Shown in pieces: positions 5,931 to 12,445 of a stretch of DNA of 64,000 nucleotides (position 1 is the stretch's first letter; every line of letters begins with the position of its first letter). Origin of the DNA: Palleronia salina (GTDB taxonomy: Bacteria; Pseudomonadota; Alphaproteobacteria; Rhodobacterales; Rhodobacteraceae); NCBI RefSeq assembly GCF_900141995.1, contig NZ_FQZA01000003.1, positions 310,001-374,000 of the forward strand. The letters run 5' to 3'. The notes beneath the pieces are model-generated. The model ran no database searches, was not told the origin of the DNA, and saw nothing but the letters and a program-made list of their open reading frames with translations. The position numbers were made by a program, and so were the translations under genes.

Positions 5931-6530
5931 TCAGCCCACGCCGGTCAGGCGGAAGGACAGCGCCTCGGCCAGGTGCGGCGCTGCGATGGCGTCGGCGCCG
6001 TCCAGGTCGGCAATGGTGCGCGCTACCCGCAGCACACGGTGATAGCCCCGCGCGCTGAGGCCCAGCCGGTCCGCCGCCGCCGTCATCATTCTGCGCCCCT
6101 CGGCGTCCAGTGCGCAGCACGCATCCAGCACGGCACCCGTGGCGTCGGCGTTCTGGCGTACGCCGTCATGGCCGGCGAAGCGGTCGTCCTGCACCTTGCG
6201 CGCCGCCGCGACACGCGCCGCCACCGTGGCGCTGCTTTCGCCACCGGGCGCGGCGTCGAGATCGGCGAAGGCCACCGGCGGCACCTCGACCCGCAGGTCG
6301 AACCGGTCCATCAGCGGCCCCGAGATCCGGCCCAGGTAATCCGCACCGCACTCGGGCACCCGGGCGCAGGCGCGCGCCGGGTCGGGCAGGTATCCGCATT
6401 TGCAGGGGTTCGCGGCGGCCACCAGCAGGAACTTGCAGGGATAGCGGATATGGGCGTTGGCGCGCGCGATCACCACGTCGCCGGTCTCGATCGGCTGGCG
6501 CAGCGTCTCCAGCACGGGCCGCGCGAATTC
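5931..6530 (-). pseudogene. comM: comM (yifB), 3' part, separated by transposon
   Basis: C-terminal part of the ComM/YifB magnesium-chelatase-like AAA+ ATPase. It reads VLETLRQPIETGDVVIARA, FLLVAAANPCKCGY, CSGISGP-like ISGPLMDRFDL and the Mg-chelatase C-terminal helical domain ending in SFRLTGVG. The upstream coding part lies at 11529-12445, 5 kb away. Joining the two with one copy of the 8-bp duplication gives an uninterrupted 503-codon frame (FMDEFPEFARPVLETLRQ across the joint), the normal family length. ComM is a branch-migration helicase used in natural transformation. This fragment lacks Walker A and B and should have no function alone. Confidence 0.93.
6523..6530. repeat. 8-bp target-site duplication, left copy
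   Basis: GCGAATTC directly outside the left transposon end; the same 8 bases lie directly outside the right end at 11529-11536. An 8-bp duplication is normal for the IS1595 family. One copy belongs to comM. Confidence 0.92.
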
Positions 6531-6554
6531 CGGTATTATGGAGCAAACTCACCA
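6531..6554 (+). repeat. Left terminal inverted repeat of the IS1595-type element
   Basis: 24 bases identical to the reverse complement of 11505-11528. Just inside, at 6559-6588, lie nested palindromes (GGTGATGCACATCACC and ATCACC-N6-GGTGAT) that may bind transposase or a regulator. Confidence 0.93.
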
Positions 6555-6568
6555 AATAAGGTGATGCA

Positions 6569-6586
6569 CATCACCGTATGTGGTGA
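6569..6586. promoter_or_regulatory. Operator-like palindrome in left end
   Basis: ATCACC-N6-GGTGAT, perfect 6-bp arms (ATCACCGTATGTGGTGAT), preceded by an overlapping palindrome GGTGATG-CA-CATCACC. It sits 12 bases before the first cargo gene. TCACCGTATG recurs at about 9006 before the DUF6471-like gene, and a related TCACCATATGTGA occurs just inside the right end (reverse strand). A binding site shared by the element's promoters and ends is inferred. Confidence 0.45.
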
Positions 6587-6598
6587 TAAACCTCATGC

Positions 6599-7066
6599 AT
6601 GAGCAATGAATCAACATACCAACGCCCAAACACTGTAGCGGGCCTTGTTGCTAAGCATAAAGAACTGTCTGACCTGCGCGAGCGCTACAAGGCCCAGATC
6701 AAGAAGCTGACGGTAGACATAGACCACCTGGACGCGGCCATTCGCGTGTTCGATCCCAATGCGGACACCTACGCGATAAAAGAGTATGTCACGAAGCATC
6801 GCGCCCAGAAAGGCGCCGTGAAGCGCTTTGTACTGTCCTACATTCGCGAGGCCACCGGGCCCGTCACGTCGCGCCAGATCACTGAAGCATGGGCCGCAGA
6901 TCGCGGCCTAGCGGCTGACGAAGCCACCTACACCACACTGCGTAAACGCATTGGGGCCTGCATAAAGGGGTGTGTGCAGCAGGGGCTTATCGAAGACCAG
7001 GGCTGGACGAAGGACCATGGTGAGAACGGGCCGTACAAGCTGTGGTCGCTACGGAATCTTGACTAG
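6599..7066 (+). CDS. Transposon cargo: coiled-coil/winged-helix-like hypothetical protein
   Basis: 155-aa protein. Residues about 12-45 form a charged helical coil (KHKELSDLRERYKAQIKKL). Residues about 75-150 look like a winged-helix fold (FVLSYIREATGPVTSRQITEAW then a second helix pair LRKRIGACIKGCVQQGLIED). No enzyme motif is visible. The start ATG at 6599 lies only 68 bp inside the transposon end, with a poor ribosome binding site, so translation may be weak or nearly leaderless from a promoter within the terminal palindromes. General design (coil then HTH) resembles the cargo protein at 7191-7931, suggesting both bind DNA. Function unknown. Confidence 0.7.
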   Translation: MSNESTYQRPNTVAGLVAKHKELSDLRERYKAQIKKLTVDIDHLDAAIRVFDPNADTYAIKEYVTKHRAQKGAVKRFVLSYIREATGPVTSRQITEAWAADRGLAADEATYTTLRKRIGACIKGCVQQGLIEDQGWTKDHGENGPYKLWSLRNLD

Positions 7067-7084
7067 TAAGCAAAATTCCAATAG

Positions 7085-7116
7085 AAAAACCGGGACGGCT
7101 CCGCAGGCCGCCCCGG
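7085..7116 (-). terminator. Rho-independent terminator for the minus-strand transposon transcript
   Basis: 10-bp stem (CCGGGACGGC 7090-7099 with GCCGCCCCGG 7107-7116, one G-T wobble on the minus strand), followed in the minus direction by TTTTT (7085-7089). It closes the transposase/cargo transcript that runs leftward from about 8988. Confidence 0.75.
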
Positions 7117-7127
7117 TCGTTTGCTGA

Positions 7128-7178
7128 TTAGATCAGTCCGCGCCCCGCGGCGCTAGATATTCTGACGGTTTGCCACAT
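7128..7178 (-). CDS. Possible 16-aa micro-ORF at the end of the cargo operon
   Basis: ATG at 7178 encodes MWQTVRISSAAGRGLI then TAA. A near-perfect Shine-Dalgarno AAAGGAG lies 6 bases before the ATG, the best in the transposon, and starts beside the stop of the 7191-7931 gene. The stop is followed by the terminator at 7085-7116. The strong ribosome site is direct evidence for translation; the product is unknown and could be a leader or a chance remnant. Confidence 0.3.
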   Translation of the reverse strand: MWQTVRISSAAGRGLI

Positions 7179-7190
7179 GGGATGCTCCTT

Positions 7191-7931
7191 TCATTTCCCG
7201 GCTCGGGATTTGTTGGGGTCCTGAGCGCCGAAGAGGTCTGACCCCTCTTCGGCGTTCGCTTCTGAGGCACCTGCGGATGCCTCATTCTCGTAGCCAAGTG
7301 GAACATATGTTTTACCATTCTTGGCGATCTCGTTGTCTCGAACCATCCTAGCCAAAAGATTGTAGACCGAATTCTTATTCTTCATCGAACCAGGATTACG
7401 GCGCTTGATTTCAGCGAAGATCACATCGGCATCTACACCGGGATGACTGGCAACAAAATCTATCACGACTGTCTTGTTGCCTGTTTGGGAAGCCCTCTCT
7501 GACCGCACGTCTTCGCGCCGACCGGCCTGAACATCATCTTGAAAGCGTCGGAACAGGAAGGGCGTGAACATATGCCCGTTGTGCTCCACCAGCTCACCCT
7601 TCGCCACCGCCTTTGAAATTGTCCCGTAGAAGGCTGCGTCGGTTTCCGCCAACCGCTGAGACAAGTGAGTCTCGCTCAGCCGGTTCCGGATCTGACTGCG
7701 GGTCGCACCGCCGGAAAATTCAGACACAATTTCTAGAATTGTTTCCCGCCATCCCTTGTTATGCCGCAAGACGCGCCCAATGCTTGGATCAACCTCGACG
7801 GGCTCAACCTCGTTGATCGGAGATAGCGTCATACCGTACTTGGCTGCGAGCGCACTGGCTTCCTCAAGCTCAGCGATACGGCGCTCGGCCTCTTCTCGAA
7901 TTTTTTGTTTGGCTCGCTCTAGCGCGTCCAT
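7191..7931 (-). CDS. Transposon cargo: coiled-coil protein with two winged-helix-like segments
   Basis: 246 aa from the ATG at 7931, which has GAGG about 9 bases upstream and begins MDALERAKQKIREEAERR, a charged coil of about 35 residues. Two helix-turn-helix-like segments follow: about residues 60-120 (IVSEFSGGATRSQIRNRL ... GELVEHNGHMFTP) and about residues 150-205 (VVIDFVASHPGVDADVIFAEI ... NEIAKNGKTYVPL). The tail is acidic and Ala/Glu-rich. The frame continues upstream of 7931 into the transposase gene, but that part lacks coding character. Same strand as and 73 bp downstream of the transposase, so probably co-transcribed. A regulatory or DNA-binding role is inferred only. Confidence 0.65.
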   Translation of the reverse strand: MDALERAKQKIREEAERRIAELEEASALAAKYGMTLSPINEVEPVEVDPSIGRVLRHNKGWRETILEIVSEFSGGATRSQIRNRLSETHLSQRLAETDAAFYGTISKAVAKGELVEHNGHMFTPFLFRRFQDDVQAGRREDVRSERASQTGNKTVVIDFVASHPGVDADVIFAEIKRRNPGSMKNKNSVYNLLARMVRDNEIAKNGKTYVPLGYENEASAGASEANAEEGSDLFGAQDPNKSRAGK

Positions 7932-8004
7932 CGCTACCAACCTCGACTGTCCTGCGGATCGATATAGAAGAGTCGCGATGAGTGCAAGAGCGTCGTGATG
8001 AAAA

Positions 8005-8988
8005 TTAGGCCCGCCGCTGCCAATATCCGCACCACCGCGCCGATACTGGCGCAGCAGCAGATGCTGCCACGAGCATGGTAAACTGAGTGCCGTTAGCGGT
8101 GCGGCGCGCGTCCTCACGCCAAGCCATCTCTGCCGCGTAGGCGTCGAGGTAGCGACCGGCGATGTGGTGGTGGGTGCCGATCTCGGCGCGGCGCATCCGG
8201 CTAAAGAAGCTCTCGGCTTGGTTGGTGCAAGCACCGTCAAGGCTGTAGGCTTCTTTGTGGTTGATGCGCTTTATCGGAAAGTAGGCAGCTAGCCGGTCCC
8301 AATGGGAGGCTTCGTCAGCGTGAACGGTGGTGCCGGGCTGGACAGTCTGCGCCACAACCTTGACGCCTTCCATTTCGGCCTTCGCCACACGAGTGACGGT
8401 GCGCCCGCCACGTTCGCGCACGGCGATCACGACCTGACGCTTGCCGTTCTGATTGACCATCTTGCGACGATCCTTGCGGTCTTTCTTCTCGTTGGCAGGC
8501 TTCACGTAGCCACCGAAGTACGCGCCATCGACCTCCACGTCGCCAGACAGCGCGCCTTGCTCACGGGCCATCTCTATGGCCTCGCGAACCTTGTGCAGCA
8601 GCACAAAAGCCGTTTTGTAGTCCACGCCCAGGTCGCGGGACATGTGCAGCGCGCTGTAGCCCTTCGCACCGTTCACGAAGATTGCGATGGCGGCGAGAAT
8701 GTCGCGCACCGCCAGCTTGCGGCTGGCGAAAATCGTGCCGGACGTGATGGAGAACTGCTTGGAGCAAGCCTTGCATTTGTAGACCGGGCGGGTGGCGAGA
8801 TCGTAGCTCTCGGTTGATCCGCAGGCCGGACAGATCGGCGCGCCGTCCGTCTCGGGCCAACGCATCTTGGCGAACGCGGCCTTAGCGGCCTTGTCGCTCA
8901 TGCGCATGACCTTTACGAGCGAGAGCGTTTTGGCGGCGGGCGAGAGAAGAAAGTGCTGCGACATCATCATATCCGGTGTGTTATTCAC
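8005..8988 (-). CDS. IS1595-family (ISXO2-like) transposase
   Basis: 327-aa transposase. The N-terminal zinc-ribbon has paired CxxC motifs (ICPACGS and YKCKACSKQF, about residues 53-78), the form expected for this family, followed by the helical FSITSGTIFASRKL region. The DDE-type catalytic domain shows VEVDGAYFGGYVKP (first Asp, about residue 152), TTVHADEASHW (second Asp) and NQAESFFSRMRRAEIG (Glu plus basic helix, about residue 263). Length and motif order match intact family members with no frameshift, so this copy should be active. The first codons MNNTPDMMMSQ offer alternative starts. Its upstream region is shared with the divergent DUF6471-like gene. Confidence 0.92.
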   Translation of the reverse strand: MNNTPDMMMSQHFLLSPAAKTLSLVKVMRMSDKAAKAAFAKMRWPETDGAPICPACGSTESYDLATRPVYKCKACSKQFSITSGTIFASRKLAVRDILAAIAIFVNGAKGYSALHMSRDLGVDYKTAFVLLHKVREAIEMAREQGALSGDVEVDGAYFGGYVKPANEKKDRKDRRKMVNQNGKRQVVIAVRERGGRTVTRVAKAEMEGVKVVAQTVQPGTTVHADEASHWDRLAAYFPIKRINHKEAYSLDGACTNQAESFFSRMRRAEIGTHHHIAGRYLDAYAAEMAWREDARRTANGTQFTMLVAASAAAPVSARWCGYWQRRA

Positions 8989-9062
8989 TGTATATAGGGC
9001 TATGAATCACCGTATGCAAGGGCTATATCATCGAATACGATGTTTTTGCAGCGGAGGTCGCG

Positions 9063-9302
9063 ATGCCCAAGGATGTGTCAGTCGTCAACGACTACGAGAC
9101 GAAAGCGAAAAACATACTAAAGGCTGAGTTGAAGCGGCGAGGGATCACCTACGGCCAGCTAGCCGACCGGCTGACTGCTCTTGGCACTCCCGAGACAGAG
9201 CGGAACCTGGCCAACAAGATAAGCCGAGGCAGTTTTACGGCGGCGTTCTTTATGTTGTGTATGGATGCGGTGGGTGCACATAGCGTTAGTCTCGACGCCT
9301 AA
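9063..9302 (+). CDS. Transposon cargo: DUF6471-like protein
   Basis: 79-aa protein with AKNILKAELKRRGITYGQL, a short linker, then NLANKISRGSFTAAFFMLCMDAVG. This is the pattern of DUF6471 proteins, which look like small helix-turn-helix DNA-binding proteins of unknown role. A GGAGG ribosome site lies about 5 bases before the ATG. The gene is divergent from the transposase with a 74-bp gap that holds a TCACCGTATG half-site, so it may regulate the transposase and itself (inference). Confidence 0.72.
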   Translation: MPKDVSVVNDYETKAKNILKAELKRRGITYGQLADRLTALGTPETERNLANKISRGSFTAAFFMLCMDAVGAHSVSLDA

Positions 9303-9337
9303 CTGAGGTCACACTTGACGTACATCGTGAAGACAGG

Positions 9338-9393
9338 AGCGTTGCAAAACGCTTCATCGTCCTACATATCTGTGTATGTGCTGAACACACACA
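9338..9393. promoter_or_regulatory. Palindromes upstream of the antitoxin-like gene
   Basis: Two inverted repeats within 110 bases of the next start: AGCGTT-GCAA-AACGCT (9338-9353) and TGTGTATGTG with its partner ACACACACA (9371-9393). Antitoxins commonly repress their own operon through such sites; binding here is inferred. Confidence 0.4.
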
Positions 9394-9447
9394 ATCTAAA
9401 CCAACCCTAACGACACTACCGGAAAATCCCACAGACAGGAGAACACG

Positions 9448-9651
9448 ATGGCCATAAAGTCGCATGCTTTTGGCCGCGTGACGCTCACGAATGACGACGC
9501 AGAGAAGTTTTCTCGCCAAGTCAAATACGGGCGGCCGACCAAGACGGCAAAAGAGAGCGTTGCTCGCGGCCTAGAACTCACCAAGAAGTTCAAGGAAGGC
9601 GGAAAGGTCAGCTTCAAATCTTACCCCAGAGAAGAGAAGATCGCTGGCTGA
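9448..9651 (+). CDS. Antitoxin-like small protein paired with GNAT gene
   Basis: 67-aa basic protein (FGRVTLTNDDAEKFSRQV then GRPTKTAKESVARGLELTKKF). The start has a clear ACAGGAG site 6 bases upstream. It lies 22 bp before a GNAT acetyltransferase gene, the order seen in GNAT toxin-antitoxin pairs. The opening RVTLTNDDAEKF is reminiscent of the first strand and helix of small antitoxins, but I cannot place it in DUF1778 with confidence. With the partner broken by an IS3 element, it is now an orphan. The role is inferred from context, not from a proven domain. Confidence 0.6.
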   Translation: MAIKSHAFGRVTLTNDDAEKFSRQVKYGRPTKTAKESVARGLELTKKFKEGGKVSFKSYPREEKIAG

Positions 9652-9673
9652 GGAAGTCGAATTCGAACTAAAA

Positions 9674-10009
9674 ATGCTTGAACCCGGCGATAGCTTCGCC
9701 GGGTTTTCTTTGGGTGATCAGCAGTATCAGCCCCTCAAAACCTTCCTCACAAGAGACTCCAAGGGCTACTCTGAGCAGCTTCTTGCGAAGACCTACGTGT
9801 TTGTGAGGGACGCAAAGGTTCGGGCCTACGTCACCTTGGTTTGCGGCGAAATCCAGGCTGAGAAGCCAGATATGGCCGATCTAGAGGGCGCTCAGTACCG
9901 CTATCAGCACTACCCCGCGATGAAGATCGCTCGTTTGGCCGTGCATAAAGAGTTCCGGAAGTTCGGGTTGGGGCGAGAGCTGGTTGACTTGTCGCTAGGG
10001 CTATCAGCG
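9674..10009 (+). pseudogene. GNAT acetyltransferase (toxin-like), 5' part
   Basis: First 112 codons of a GNAT-fold N-acetyltransferase, ending in the acetyl-CoA-binding motif A region (MKIARLAVHKEFRKFGLGRELVDLSLGLSA). An IS3-family element follows at once. Joining 9674-10009 to 11324-11485 (one copy of the CAGCG duplication kept) gives an uninterrupted 165-aa protein, a normal length for GNAT toxins such as TacT/AtaT, which acetylate charged tRNAs. The fragment alone reads a few residues into the IS and stops at 10012, so acetyl-CoA binding would be incomplete. ATG 9674 lacks a strong ribosome site; translation may have been coupled to the antitoxin-like gene. Confidence 0.85.
10005..10009. 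repeat. 5-bp target duplication of the IS3-family element, left copy
   Basis: CAGCG, repeated at 11319-11323 directly after the right IS end. Five bases is usual for the IS2 group of IS3. Confidence 0.88.
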
Positions 10010-10065
10010 TGAACTGGCCCCCATTTCGACCGGACACTTGGGCATAACCATGGAGGCTTAGGCAT

Positions 10066-10461
10066 ATGCCTGAGCACGTGCTTATGTCTGAGATAGAGAT
10101 CATCACCGATGGCGGCCGTCGGCGCCGCTGGTCCGCGAGTGAAAAGATGCGGATCGTCGAGGAGACGCTGGAGGAAGGCACCAGCATCTCTGTCGTGGCC
10201 CGCCGCAATGGCGTTGCGCCGAACCTTCTGTATCGTTGGCGACGCCTGATGCTGGATGGAGGAGCCGTGGCCGTGTCCGAGGATGACGACGTGACCAGCA
10301 ATCGCGCTGTCCGGCAGATGGAGGAGCGCATCCGGGAGCTTGAGCGGCAGCTTGGCCGCAAGACGCTGGAGGTCGAGATCCTCAAGGAGGCGCTGGACAA
10401 GACCCGCTCAAAAAAACGGACGTGGCTCGCGCAGTCGCAGCCGAAGGACGGTTCCCGGTGA
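10066..10461 (+). CDS. IS3-family transposase OrfA
   Basis: 131-aa helix-turn-helix protein: SASEKMRIVEETLEEGTSISVVARRNGVAPNLLYRWRR is the DNA-binding HTH of the IS2 group, followed by a leucine-zipper-like coil (RQMEERIRELERQLGRKTLEVEILKEAL) used for multimerisation. GGAGG lies 10 bases before the ATG. The run of seven A at 10410-10416 near the end is a standard site for -1 ribosomal frameshifting to make the OrfAB transposase. Confidence 0.9.
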   Translation: MPEHVLMSEIEIITDGGRRRRWSASEKMRIVEETLEEGTSISVVARRNGVAPNLLYRWRRLMLDGGAVAVSEDDDVTSNRAVRQMEERIRELERQLGRKTLEVEILKEALDKTRSKKRTWLAQSQPKDGSR

Positions 10462-11291
10462 CGGTCGTGGCCGAGACCCTGGGCGTCTCCCGTTCGAACC
10501 TGCACGCCCGGCTGAACGGGAGCGCGAAGCCGCGGCGGCGCTACCATAAGGCGCAAGACGCGGCGGTCCTGCCGTTGATCACGACGCTGGTGGCGGCGCG
10601 CCCCACATACGGCTATCGCCGGATCACCGCGCTCCTGAACCGGCAGCTCCGGGCGCAAGGGACCGGGCCCGTGAACCACAAGCGTGTCTACCGCATCATG
10701 AAGGCGCACAACCTCCTCCTGGCTCGGAAATACACCGAACGACCAGAGCTGACCCACGAAGGCAAGGTGGTCACGATGCGCTCGAACATTCGCTGGTGCT
10801 CGGACGGCTTCGAGTTCATCTGCTGGAACGGTGATGTCGTGCGTGGCGCCTTCATCATCGACGCGCACGATCGGGAGATCATCTCCTGGCGGGCTGTCGT
10901 GAACGCCGGCATCAGCGGATCGGACGTCCGCGACATGATGCTGGAGGCGGTCGAGCGGCGGTTCGGGGTTTACCGGACCCCGCATCCTGTCGAGATGCTG
11001 AGCGACAACGGCTCCTGTTACATCGCCCGGGACACGCGCATCTTCGCACACCAGCTCGGCCTGAGGCCCTGCTACACGCCGGTGAAGAGCCCGCAGAGCA
11101 ATGGCATCGCCGAGGCGTTCGTGAAGACGCTGAAGCGCGACTACGTCCACGTAACGCCGTTGCCGGACGCCGCCACAGTCCTCGGATTGATCGCTGGGTG
11201 GATCGAGGACTACAACAACAACCACCCGCACTCAGGGCTGAAGATGCGCTCGCCTCGCGAGTTCATCGCAGCTCAAACTGCAACCGCCTGA
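10422..11291 (+). CDS. IS3-family transposase OrfB (DDE integrase domain)
   Basis: 289-aa product read from a GTG, or more likely as the C-terminal part of the OrfAB frameshift fusion. An HTH_21 region (PTYGYRRITALLNRQL) precedes the rve integrase core, with the first Asp in IIDAHDREIISW, the second in MLSDNGSCYIA and the Glu in NGIAEAFVKTLKRDYV, the normal DDE spacing. It overlaps OrfA in the -1 frame by 40 bases. All catalytic residues are present. Confidence 0.92.
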   Translation: MARAVAAEGRFPVTVVAETLGVSRSNLHARLNGSAKPRRRYHKAQDAAVLPLITTLVAARPTYGYRRITALLNRQLRAQGTGPVNHKRVYRIMKAHNLLLARKYTERPELTHEGKVVTMRSNIRWCSDGFEFICWNGDVVRGAFIIDAHDREIISWRAVVNAGISGSDVRDMMLEAVERRFGVYRTPHPVEMLSDNGSCYIARDTRIFAHQLGLRPCYTPVKSPQSNGIAEAFVKTLKRDYVHVTPLPDAATVLGLIAGWIEDYNNNHPHSGLKMRSPREFIAAQTATA

Positions 11292-11318
11292 GTGTCCGTT
11301 GAAACGGGGGCAAGACCA

Positions 11319-11323
11319 CAGCG
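11319..11323. repeat. 5-bp target duplication of the IS3-family element, right copy
   Basis: CAGCG, matching 10005-10009. Confidence 0.88.
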
Positions 11324-11485
11324 GAAGTAGCAAAAATCGCAGGATGCCGCTTTGTTGTCGTCGATGCAAAGCGCCCATCCATAGCATTTTATGAAAGATG
11401 TGGTTTTCGTATGCTTGACACAGACGAGAACCGAGAGCGCCAAGAGCCCATCATGTTTATCGACTTGAAGGGGTATGATTTATAG
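11324..11485 (+). pseudogene. GNAT acetyltransferase (toxin-like), 3' part
   Basis: Last 53 codons and stop of the interrupted GNAT gene: EVAKIAGCRFVVVDAKRPS then AFYERCGFRML, the last strands and the conserved Tyr-containing motif B region, ending KGYDL. It is in frame with 9674-10009 once the IS and one CAGCG copy are removed. It has no start of its own. The stop lies 19 bases before the right inverted repeat, so the gene nearly fills the transposon end. Confidence 0.87.
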
Positions 11486-11504
11486 CGATAAACATCATCA
11501 CATA

Positions 11505-11528
11505 TGGTGAGTTTGCTCCATAATACCG
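11505..11528 (-). repeat. Right terminal inverted repeat of the IS1595-type element
   Basis: Perfect 24-bp reverse complement of 6531-6554. TCACATATGGTGA overlaps its inner border, resembling the palindromes inside the left end. Confidence 0.93.
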
Positions 11529-11536
11529 GCGAATTC
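11529..11536. repeat. 8-bp target-site duplication, right copy
   Basis: GCGAATTC, matching 6523-6530; marks the insertion point in comM. Confidence 0.92.
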
Positions 11537-12445
11537 GGGGAACTCGTCCATGAACAGAACCCCGTTATGGGCGAGGCTGATCTGCCCGGGCTTCGCACCC
11601 TTCCCGCCGCCCACGATAGCGGGCATGGACGCGGTGTGGTGCGGCTCCATGAAGGGGCGGGTGCGGCTGATGCCGCCATCGCTGATAAGGCCCGCCAGCG
11701 AATGGATCATCGACGTCTCCAGCGCCTCGGCCGGGGTCAGCGGCGGCAGGATTCCCGACAGCCGCTGGGCCAGCATCGACTTGCCCGATCCGGGCGTGCC
11801 GACCATCATCAGGTGGTGTCGCCCGGCGGCCGCGATTTCCAGCGCGCGCTTGGCCCGTTCCTGGCCCTTCATGTCGGACAGGTCGCGCAGGGCGGGGCCG
11901 TCGGTGACCTCGCCCGGCTCGGCCGGGTTCAGCGGGGATTGGCCGGTCAGGTGCTGGATCGCGGCGGCCAGCGTCGGTGGCGCGATGACCGTCGTGGCGC
12001 CGACCCACGCCGCCTCGGCGCCGCAGGGGGCGGGGCAAAGCAGCGTGCGGTCGCATTCGGCCGCGGCCATGGCGGCGGGCAGCGCGCCGACCACGGCGGT
12101 CAGGCGGCCATCCAGCGACAGCTCGCCCAGGGCGACCGTCTCGGCCACGGTATCGCGCGGCACCACGTCCAGTGCCGCGAGGATGGCGAGCGCGATGGGC
12201 AGATCGAAATGGCTGCCTTCCTTGGGCAGGTCGGCGGGGGCCAGGTTGATGACGATCCGGTTGGGCGGCAGCGCGATGGACATGGTCTCCAACGCGGCGC
12301 GCACCCGGTCGCGCGCCTCGGACACCGCCTTGTCGGGCAGGCCCACGACCGAAAAGGCCGGCAGACCGGGCGCCACGGCGCACTGCACCTCGACCAGGCG
12401 GGCCTCGATCCCTTCGAACGCCACCGTGAAGGCGCTGGCGACCAT
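11529..12445 (-). pseudogene. comM: comM (yifB), 5' part, truncated by transposon
   Basis: N-terminal 305 codons of the ComM/YifB AAA+ protein, starting MVASAFTVAFEGIEARLVEV. It holds the N-terminal Lon-protease-like ChlI domain (LPAFSVVGLPDKAVSEARDR), then the Mg-chelatase ATPase with Walker A GTPGSGKS (about residue 219) and Walker B VLFMDEFPEF (about residue 297), at which point the insertion lies. Translation runs 11 codons into the transposon and stops at 11498, leaving a 315-aa product without sensor and arginine-finger regions. In Acinetobacter comM is a known island target. Here the insertion is of a different kind. The strain should be impaired in transformation-type recombination if no second comM exists. 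Confidence 0.94.

What the first reader, a model, noticed from the sequence alone, without database searches (positions are those of the whole stretch)
5931..12445. comM split by a 4998-bp IS1595-family transposon, exactly reversible on paper
Seen: perfect 24-bp inverted ends, 8-bp GCGAATTC duplication, and a 503-codon comM frame when 6531-11528 and one duplication copy are removed. Known: ComM is a branch-migration helicase for transformation, and comM is an island target in Acinetobacter. Inferred: the insertion is recent and the strain has reduced recombination of incoming DNA.
Basis: partly seen in the sequence, partly recalled or inferred. Interest (0 to 1): 0.75.

Follow-up and report, generated by a model that had tools for sequence, protein, structure and literature searches.

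The report
comM-targeting IS1595 transposon with target selector
A jumping DNA element has split a bacterial DNA-recombination gene, and its relatives hit that same spot again and again in many other bacteria, apparently steered by a small DNA-binding protein that each element carries.

Summary
In detail: a 4998-bp insert with perfect 24-bp inverted ends and a GCGAATTC duplication splits comM, and a sister genome (96.7% identical there) has the empty site. But it is neither a chance hit nor one unit: it is a 3684-bp IS1595 transposon holding a nested 1309-bp IS3-family (IS2-like) element. Among 77 bounded relatives found without regard to target (index case and one duplicate removed), 31 sit in comM at two codon positions: 22 at the E-F codons beside Walker B (this site), 9 at E-x-L codons 64 residues upstream. 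All 79 distinct bounded elements also hold a second, unannotated gene (here 6599-7066): long helix plus winged helix, usually about 68 bp from one end. This protein, not the transposase, tracks the target (nearest relative shares it in 49 of 50; transposase 24 of 50), while the inverted ends track the transposase. Best reading: a swappable target selector in IS1595 transposons, converging on the comM motif used by TnsF of Tn6022 and Tsy. Targeting of comM is very well supported; the selector role is correlational, has off-target exceptions and needs a transposition assay. Loss of ComM function is likely but untested.

The parts
11537..12445 (-). comM 5' part, 303 codons (Walker A included); the duplicated target codes for E304-F305, just after Walker B D300-E301
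   Evidence: PF13541 and first part of PF01078; tblastn 1-306; motif positions
5931..6530 (-). comM 3' part (C-terminal about 200 codons, one TSD copy included)
   Evidence: PF13335 and second part of PF01078; tblastn 302-502
6523..6530 (.). target-site duplication, copy 1 (GCGAATTC)
11529..11536 (.). target-site duplication, copy 2 (GCGAATTC)
6531..6554 (+). terminal inverted repeat next to the second gene
   Evidence: 24 of 24 match
11505..11528 (-). terminal inverted repeat, other end
   Evidence: 24 of 24 match
6599..7066 (+). conserved second gene (155 aa): long N-terminal helix, linker, C-terminal winged helix; proposed target selector
   Evidence: a member in all 79 distinct bounded elements; AF2 mean pLDDT 81.2; no convincing Pfam, NCBIfam or PADLOC match; tracks target
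7191..7931 (-). cargo ORF, 246 aa, unknown
   Evidence: no Pfam, NCBIfam or PADLOC match
8005..8988 (-). IS1595-family transposase (327 aa) with zinc ribbon
   Evidence: PF12762 144.7 bits, PF12760 53.9 bits; NF033547 151.2 bits
9063..9302 (+). DUF6471 protein, cargo
   Evidence: PF20075 102 bits
9448..9651 (+). 67-aa cargo ORF
   Evidence: ORF; no family
9674..10009 (+). 5' part of a gene with weak GNAT acetyltransferase matches, cut by the nested element
   Evidence: Acetyltransf_7 and Acetyltransf_1, both below cut-off
10010..11318 (+). nested IS3-family element with two overlapping frames (10066-10461, 10422-11291); 5-bp repeat CAGCG; IS2-like by best subfamily matches
   Evidence: NF033516 226 bits, over cut-off, for the second frame; IS2 models PRK09409 and PRK09413 score best but under their cut-offs; ends

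Best explanation
The insert is one member of a large alphaproteobacterial group of cargo-carrying IS1595 transposons that favour chosen, mostly coding, sites. The transposase recognises the inverted ends and does the cutting and joining; a separate winged-helix protein, usually encoded about 68 bp from one end, chooses the target. [quoted passage not shown] Shown: two exact comM sites, repeated independent insertion, second gene in all bounded elements, target follows that protein and ends follow the transposase. Inferred: that the protein binds the target or recruits the transposase to it, and that ComM loss lowers recombination of incoming DNA, which could also protect the element from removal.
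For: 31 of 77 bounded elements found by transposase alone lie in comM, 22 at site A and 9 at site B, at the same codons with wobble differences (duplicate found). Across host families elements are closer than the ComM they sit in (window vs Methyloligella: ComM 54%, transposase 79%, second protein 75%); both orientations occur (A 11/13, B 2/7, L194 included); the sister is empty. Second gene in 80 of 80 rows. Target labels need 15 changes on its tree, 33 on the transposase tree. Nearest relative shares the target in 49 of 50 vs 24 of 50; partial Mantel 0.67 (p 0.0005) vs -0.14. Ends track the transposase: 0.50 vs 0.10. With same-target, same-orientation rows removed still 32 of 33 vs 13 of 33. 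Natural swaps: L194, L068/L079, L031/L099. Six new elements at known targets: nearest second protein right for 5, transposase for 1. comM survey: 5 of 395 family genomes, own included, all at site A.
Against: No biochemical evidence. Elements with A-like second proteins lie elsewhere: L057, L065, L067, L091, and L058/L064 at a site of their own. Among new loci L235 (B-like, 72%), L236 (B-like, 58%), L266 (A-like, 54%) and L229 (GT2-like, 48%) were not found at the predicted target. On the second protein's own tree site A still needs 6 changes. Within the own family ComM and element identities are about equal (for example L074: 76% vs 73%), so the argument from identity has no force there, and for L082 ComM (61%) is closer than the second protein (47%). 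Foldseek gives no match at E 0.001 or below. Two elements hold the gene on the other strand, and in L028 and L037 it is short (72 and 65 aa). I had seen the second proteins before setting the labels, and partial Mantel does not fully model shared ancestry.
Confidence: 0.75

Rival explanations
1. Chance insertion with only a loose preference for an 8-bp GARTTYNC-like sequence; comM is one of many hits.
For: The TSD is near-palindromic and both orientations occur, and 46 of the 79 bounded rows lie outside comM.
Against: GARTTYNC occurs 18 times in the 64-kb window, so by extrapolation about 1000 times per genome, yet 22 of 77 elements sit at one of them. log10 P is about -89 for 33 or more of 79 in comM under uniform insertion and about -52 for 24 or more of 79 at one of 1000 sites (both figures still count the index case and one duplicate).
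Confidence: 0.02
2. A few old comM insertions were inherited or passed between strains together with their flanks, so shared site and shared second gene reflect linkage, not function.
For: The second gene lies a median of 68 bp from an element end, next to the flank; within the own family ComM and element identities are about equal.
Against: Across families elements are more alike than the ComM flanks; both orientations at each site and 32 of 33 after dropping same-orientation rows; sister genome empty; non-comM targets show the same pattern with distant transposases (L068/L079, L031/L099).
Confidence: 0.08
3. The second protein is a regulator or has another role, and some other part of the element linked to it (noncoding end or cargo) sets the target.
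For: The weak Foldseek matches are mostly winged-helix regulators; the gene sits next to the end.
Against: Ends follow the transposase, not this protein; the longest exact element-target match is no longer than with foreign targets (mean 9.52 vs 9.40 nt over 79 elements), which speaks against a long guide-like stretch but not against a short or split one.
Confidence: 0.15

Closest known systems
IS1595 family insertion sequences
   Same: Zinc ribbon plus DDE_Tnp_IS1595 transposase, inverted ends, 8-bp duplication, one transposase gene.
   Different: A conserved second gene and site preference, which the family summary seen in PMC8101967 (passages) does not mention. That some IS1595 members carry passenger genes, and the subgroup name ISNha5 for them, is recalled, not tested.
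Tn6022 (Tn7-like) and Tsy with target selector TnsF
   Different: Unrelated machinery: IS1595 transposase and a roughly 150-aa winged-helix protein instead of the tyrosine-recombinase-related TnsF; both orientations; also a second comM site and other genes.
AbaR and other comM-interrupting elements of Acinetobacter baumannii
   Same: comM inactivated by mobile elements, associated there with low transformation (PMC11472951, passages).
   Different: Different element family; hosts here are Alphaproteobacteria.
Serine-recombinase islands at comM Walker A (G337, G026, seen here)
   Same: Also split comM at a conserved ATPase motif.
   Different: Large serine recombinase, inserts of about 9-12 kb, residue about 210-217 rather than 304.

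Membership tests
IS1595 family | DDE_Tnp_IS1595 domain and zinc ribbon | tested here: met
   PF12762 144.7 bits, PF12760 53.9 bits; NF033547 151.2 bits, all over cut-off
IS1595 family | 8-bp target duplication and inverted ends | tested here: met
   also 77 of 110 related loci at the stricter setting
IS1595 family | single transposase gene (family summary in PMC8101967, passage) | tested here: met
   one IS1595 transposase gene; the conserved second gene (80 of 80 rows) comes on top; the nested IS3-family genes belong to another element
IS1595 subgroup ISNha5 | closest ISfinder subgroup by transposase | not testable with these tools
   ISfinder not held; name recalled
Tn7-like / TnsF-guided elements | tnsABC or tyrosine-recombinase-related selector | tested here: not met
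   no such domain among the element proteins of the window scanned with Pfam
Site-directed transposon with separable target selector (works like) | repeated insertion at fixed sites, independent of transposase type | tested here: met
   exceptions
Site-directed transposon with separable target selector (works like) | selector binds target DNA and is needed for targeting | not testable with these tools
   needs an assay
IS3 family (nested element) | two overlapping frames and IS3-type transposase | tested here: met
   NF033516 226 bits against cut-off 160 for the second frame
IS2 subgroup of IS3 (nested element) | IS2 transposase models over their cut-offs | tested here: not met
   PRK09409 270 of 597 bits, PRK09413 77.5 of 229 bits; hence only IS2-like

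The most novel reading that the evidence does not exclude
IS1595 transposons own an undescribed family of small, swappable winged-helix target selectors, each type aimed at a conserved motif of a different gene (comM Walker B, a second comM motif, glycosyltransferase motifs, an HNH-like motif, the apparent mnmE 3' end). comM Walker B would then be attacked by three transposition machineries, two of which share TnsF, which fits the idea that elements gain by silencing recombination.
Probability: 0.7. Interest if true: 0.9.

Novelty: new variant of a known kind. Interest (0 to 1): 0.85.

Why it matters
If true, a common insertion-sequence family has evolved protein-guided targeting with a very small, exchangeable module (about 150 aa). 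It also makes an open question testable: is comM hit because it is a safe, conserved address, or because silencing recombination protects the element? Convergence of unrelated elements on the same motif, with many independent insertions and an empty sister site, gives natural replicates for that test.

Tried and rejected
Rejected: chance insertion; inheritance with the flanks as the main cause; a long guide-like stretch shared by element and target; second protein as the end-recognition protein. Led nowhere: PADLOC and NCBIfam for the cargo and second protein; Foldseek (weak matches only). Literature, all as listings with titles and abstract starts unless said otherwise: 'IS1595' + 'passenger gene' 15 papers; 'comM' + 'gene transfer agent' 829, 20 listed (the term also catches words such as community); 'comM' + 'natural transformation' + 'insertion' + 'helicase' 31, 20 listed; 'comM' + 'IS1595' 5, none opened; 'ISNha5' 3, two looked into for passages; 'comM' + 'transposon' + 'target site' + 'Alphaproteobacteria' none; 'TnsF' + 'comM' 3; 'IS1595' + 'target specificity' 6, none opened; a four-term winged-helix search none. 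Passages of PMC9765227 held nothing on comM; PMC11612176 was seen as outline and abstract. A control gene for break frequency in the family was planned and not run. The label 'rep' in the trees was set by eye and left out of the 50-row test.
Full report
Observation. The element occupies 6531-11528, with 24 of 24 matching end bases and GCGAATTC on both sides; the comM flanks give 502 aa plus stop. A same-genus genome, G006, has the uninterrupted gene with one GCGAATTC (96.7% over 2539 nt, no gaps). All 14 genomes searched in the genus match the N-terminal part of comM; the own genome has the shortest frame (320 aa; the others 438-692 aa; the 438 of G012 was not examined). The own genome (99.86% complete) has one strong comM match and one copy of the element; comEC and dprA have long open frames (710 and 490 aa). 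comM differs from the sister in 45 synonymous and 5 non-synonymous codons, so the break looks recent relative to that split.

Anatomy, in window order: the second gene (6599-7066, 155 aa); a 246-aa ORF; the transposase with zinc ribbon and DDE_Tnp_IS1595; DUF6471; a 67-aa ORF; and a GNAT-like gene cut by a nested IS3-family element at 10010-11318 with 5-bp repeat CAGCG. The nested element has one further match in the genome, 121 bp at C2:3131-3251.

Relatives and targets. Loci were collected by transposase similarity only: 30 loci from 295 family genomes (70 with a match; L021 is the own element) and the best 80 of 105 relatives in genome contigs. In 79 of 111 sequences (110 loci plus window) the element could be bounded by ends and an 8-bp duplication; 33 of the 79 lie in comM. 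L022 and L074 are the same element. Taking off that duplicate and the index case leaves 31 of 77: 22 at site A, 9 at site B. L082 and L103 show comM on one side only. Site A is the E-F codons right after Walker B (FMDEFPEF at 298-305 of the sister protein), duplication GARTTYNC or nearly so (L109 has GAATACAC); site B falls on E240-A241-L242. L112 and L092 also have comM matches but were not bounded. Hosts at site A span Roseobacteraceae, Paracoccaceae, Rhizobiaceae, Hyphomicrobiaceae, Hyphomonadaceae, Parvularculaceae, Caulobacteraceae, Sphingomonadaceae and Thalassobaculaceae.

A survey from the other side: comM was sought in 395 family genomes; 376 match (the 19 without a match were not examined). 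I rechecked 26, namely the 21 besides the own with two or more pieces and 5 of the weak single matches (other weak ones were not rechecked), and took 18 stretches from 14 of them. Five of 395, the own genome included, carry an IS1595 element in comM, all at site A (own, G279, G322, G355, G359). In G126 the contig ends at site A, which may hide one more. G337 and G026 carry serine-recombinase islands at residue 210-217. The others include contig breaks and frameshifts and were not resolved.

Second gene. One cluster holds a protein from 80 of 80 bounded rows (79 distinct), 78 on the strand opposite the transposase, its edge a median of 68 bp from an element end (79 elements, range 48-1919). AlphaFold2 gives helix 10-51, a loose linker, and a C-terminal part with helices 73-84, 91-101, 108-127 and strands 131-136, 147-151, mean pLDDT 81.2; Foldseek finds winged-helix proteins weakly, best E 0.003. 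A class-wide search with its profile gave 18 matches in 17 of 289 genomes; 10 of the 18 loci showed the transposase within 1.5 kb and wider stretches added L229 and L230. Of the six without it, two (L232 of G643, L234 of G641) come from genomes that have the transposase on another contig; L231, L233, L241 and L242 showed none, three of these from weak matches of 40 bits or less.

What sets the target. Labels come from flank comparisons; I had already seen the second proteins, so this was not blind. In trees of 77 rows (of 80; L022 dropped as duplicate, L028 and L037 for short second proteins; L194, found through comM, kept) all labels need 33 changes on the transposase tree and 15 on the second protein's tree; site B goes from 7 to 1, site A from 12 to 6. 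On the 50 rows with flank-defined targets the nearest second protein shares the target in 49, the nearest transposase in 24; partial Mantel 0.67 against -0.14. Two of these labels join different sites of one gene (L081 in GT1, L130 in GT2). The ends behave the other way: 0.50 with the transposase, 0.10 with the second protein. The winged-helix half alone gives 48 of 50, the helix half 46 of 50. L194 is the clearest swap: its transposase lies in a clade that otherwise inserts elsewhere (54% to the window's), its second protein is 66% identical to the window's, and it sits at site A. L068/L079 and L031/L099 show the same for the apparent mnmE end and an HNH-like motif (named by eye from the translated flanks, not by a family search).

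New elements. Of 20 loci (L263 repeats L102; L236, L237 and L240 came only through the second protein's profile) six lie at a known target: L237 and L240 (A), L269 (B), L238 and L262 (GT2), L271 (mnmE); L262 and L271 by flank match without bounded ends, and L262's second protein is taken from another contig, L232. By bit score the nearest second protein is right in 5 (L238's best is an unlabelled one, its second best GT2), the nearest transposase in 1. Against: L235, L236, L266 and L229 carry B-, B-, A- and GT2-like proteins (48-72%) and were not found at those targets.

Function. Insertion cuts the ATPase domain between the two parts of PF01078, so loss of ComM is expected. In Acinetobacter, comM inactivation goes with low transformation, and the text says that loss hits recombination of heterologous DNA most (PMC11472951, passages). 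A role of ComM in gene-transfer-agent uptake in Rhodobacter is recalled, not read here.

Known context. TnsF of Tn6022 and Tsy targets a 10-bp region in comM Walker B (PMC10293859, passages). In the held library the searches listed no title that joins IS1595 and comM targeting; the listed papers were not opened, and subscription papers are largely missing.

Noticed in passing
L196 (G337), L197 (G026): comM is split at the Walker A region (residue about 210-217) by inserts of about 9-12 kb with a large serine recombinase.
   Followed up: partly
L237:1775-3648: A 1874-bp derivative with only a C-terminal transposase match, a second-gene match over 145 residues and 20 of 20 matching end bases sits at comM site A.
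   Followed up: partly
L075, L078, L085, L087; L072, L125; L130, L238; L073, L076, L077; L068, L079, L271; L031, L099: Other recurrent conserved targets of the same transposon group: glycosyltransferase-like motifs, an unknown gene, the apparent mnmE 3' end, an HNH-like motif (gene names by eye).
   Followed up: partly
window 9448-10009: 67-aa ORF followed by a GNAT-like gene resembles a toxin-antitoxin-like pair (recalled impression), broken by the nested element.
   Followed up: no
L098:5001-7908: A related transposase lies about 500 bp from a comM matched in one piece (residues 10-497); the element was not bounded.
   Followed up: no
G000:C2:3131-3251: A 121-bp fragment 92% identical to the nested IS3-family element.
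   Followed up: no
L198 (G126:C254 start): A contig ends at comM site A, possibly an unassembled insertion.
   Followed up: no
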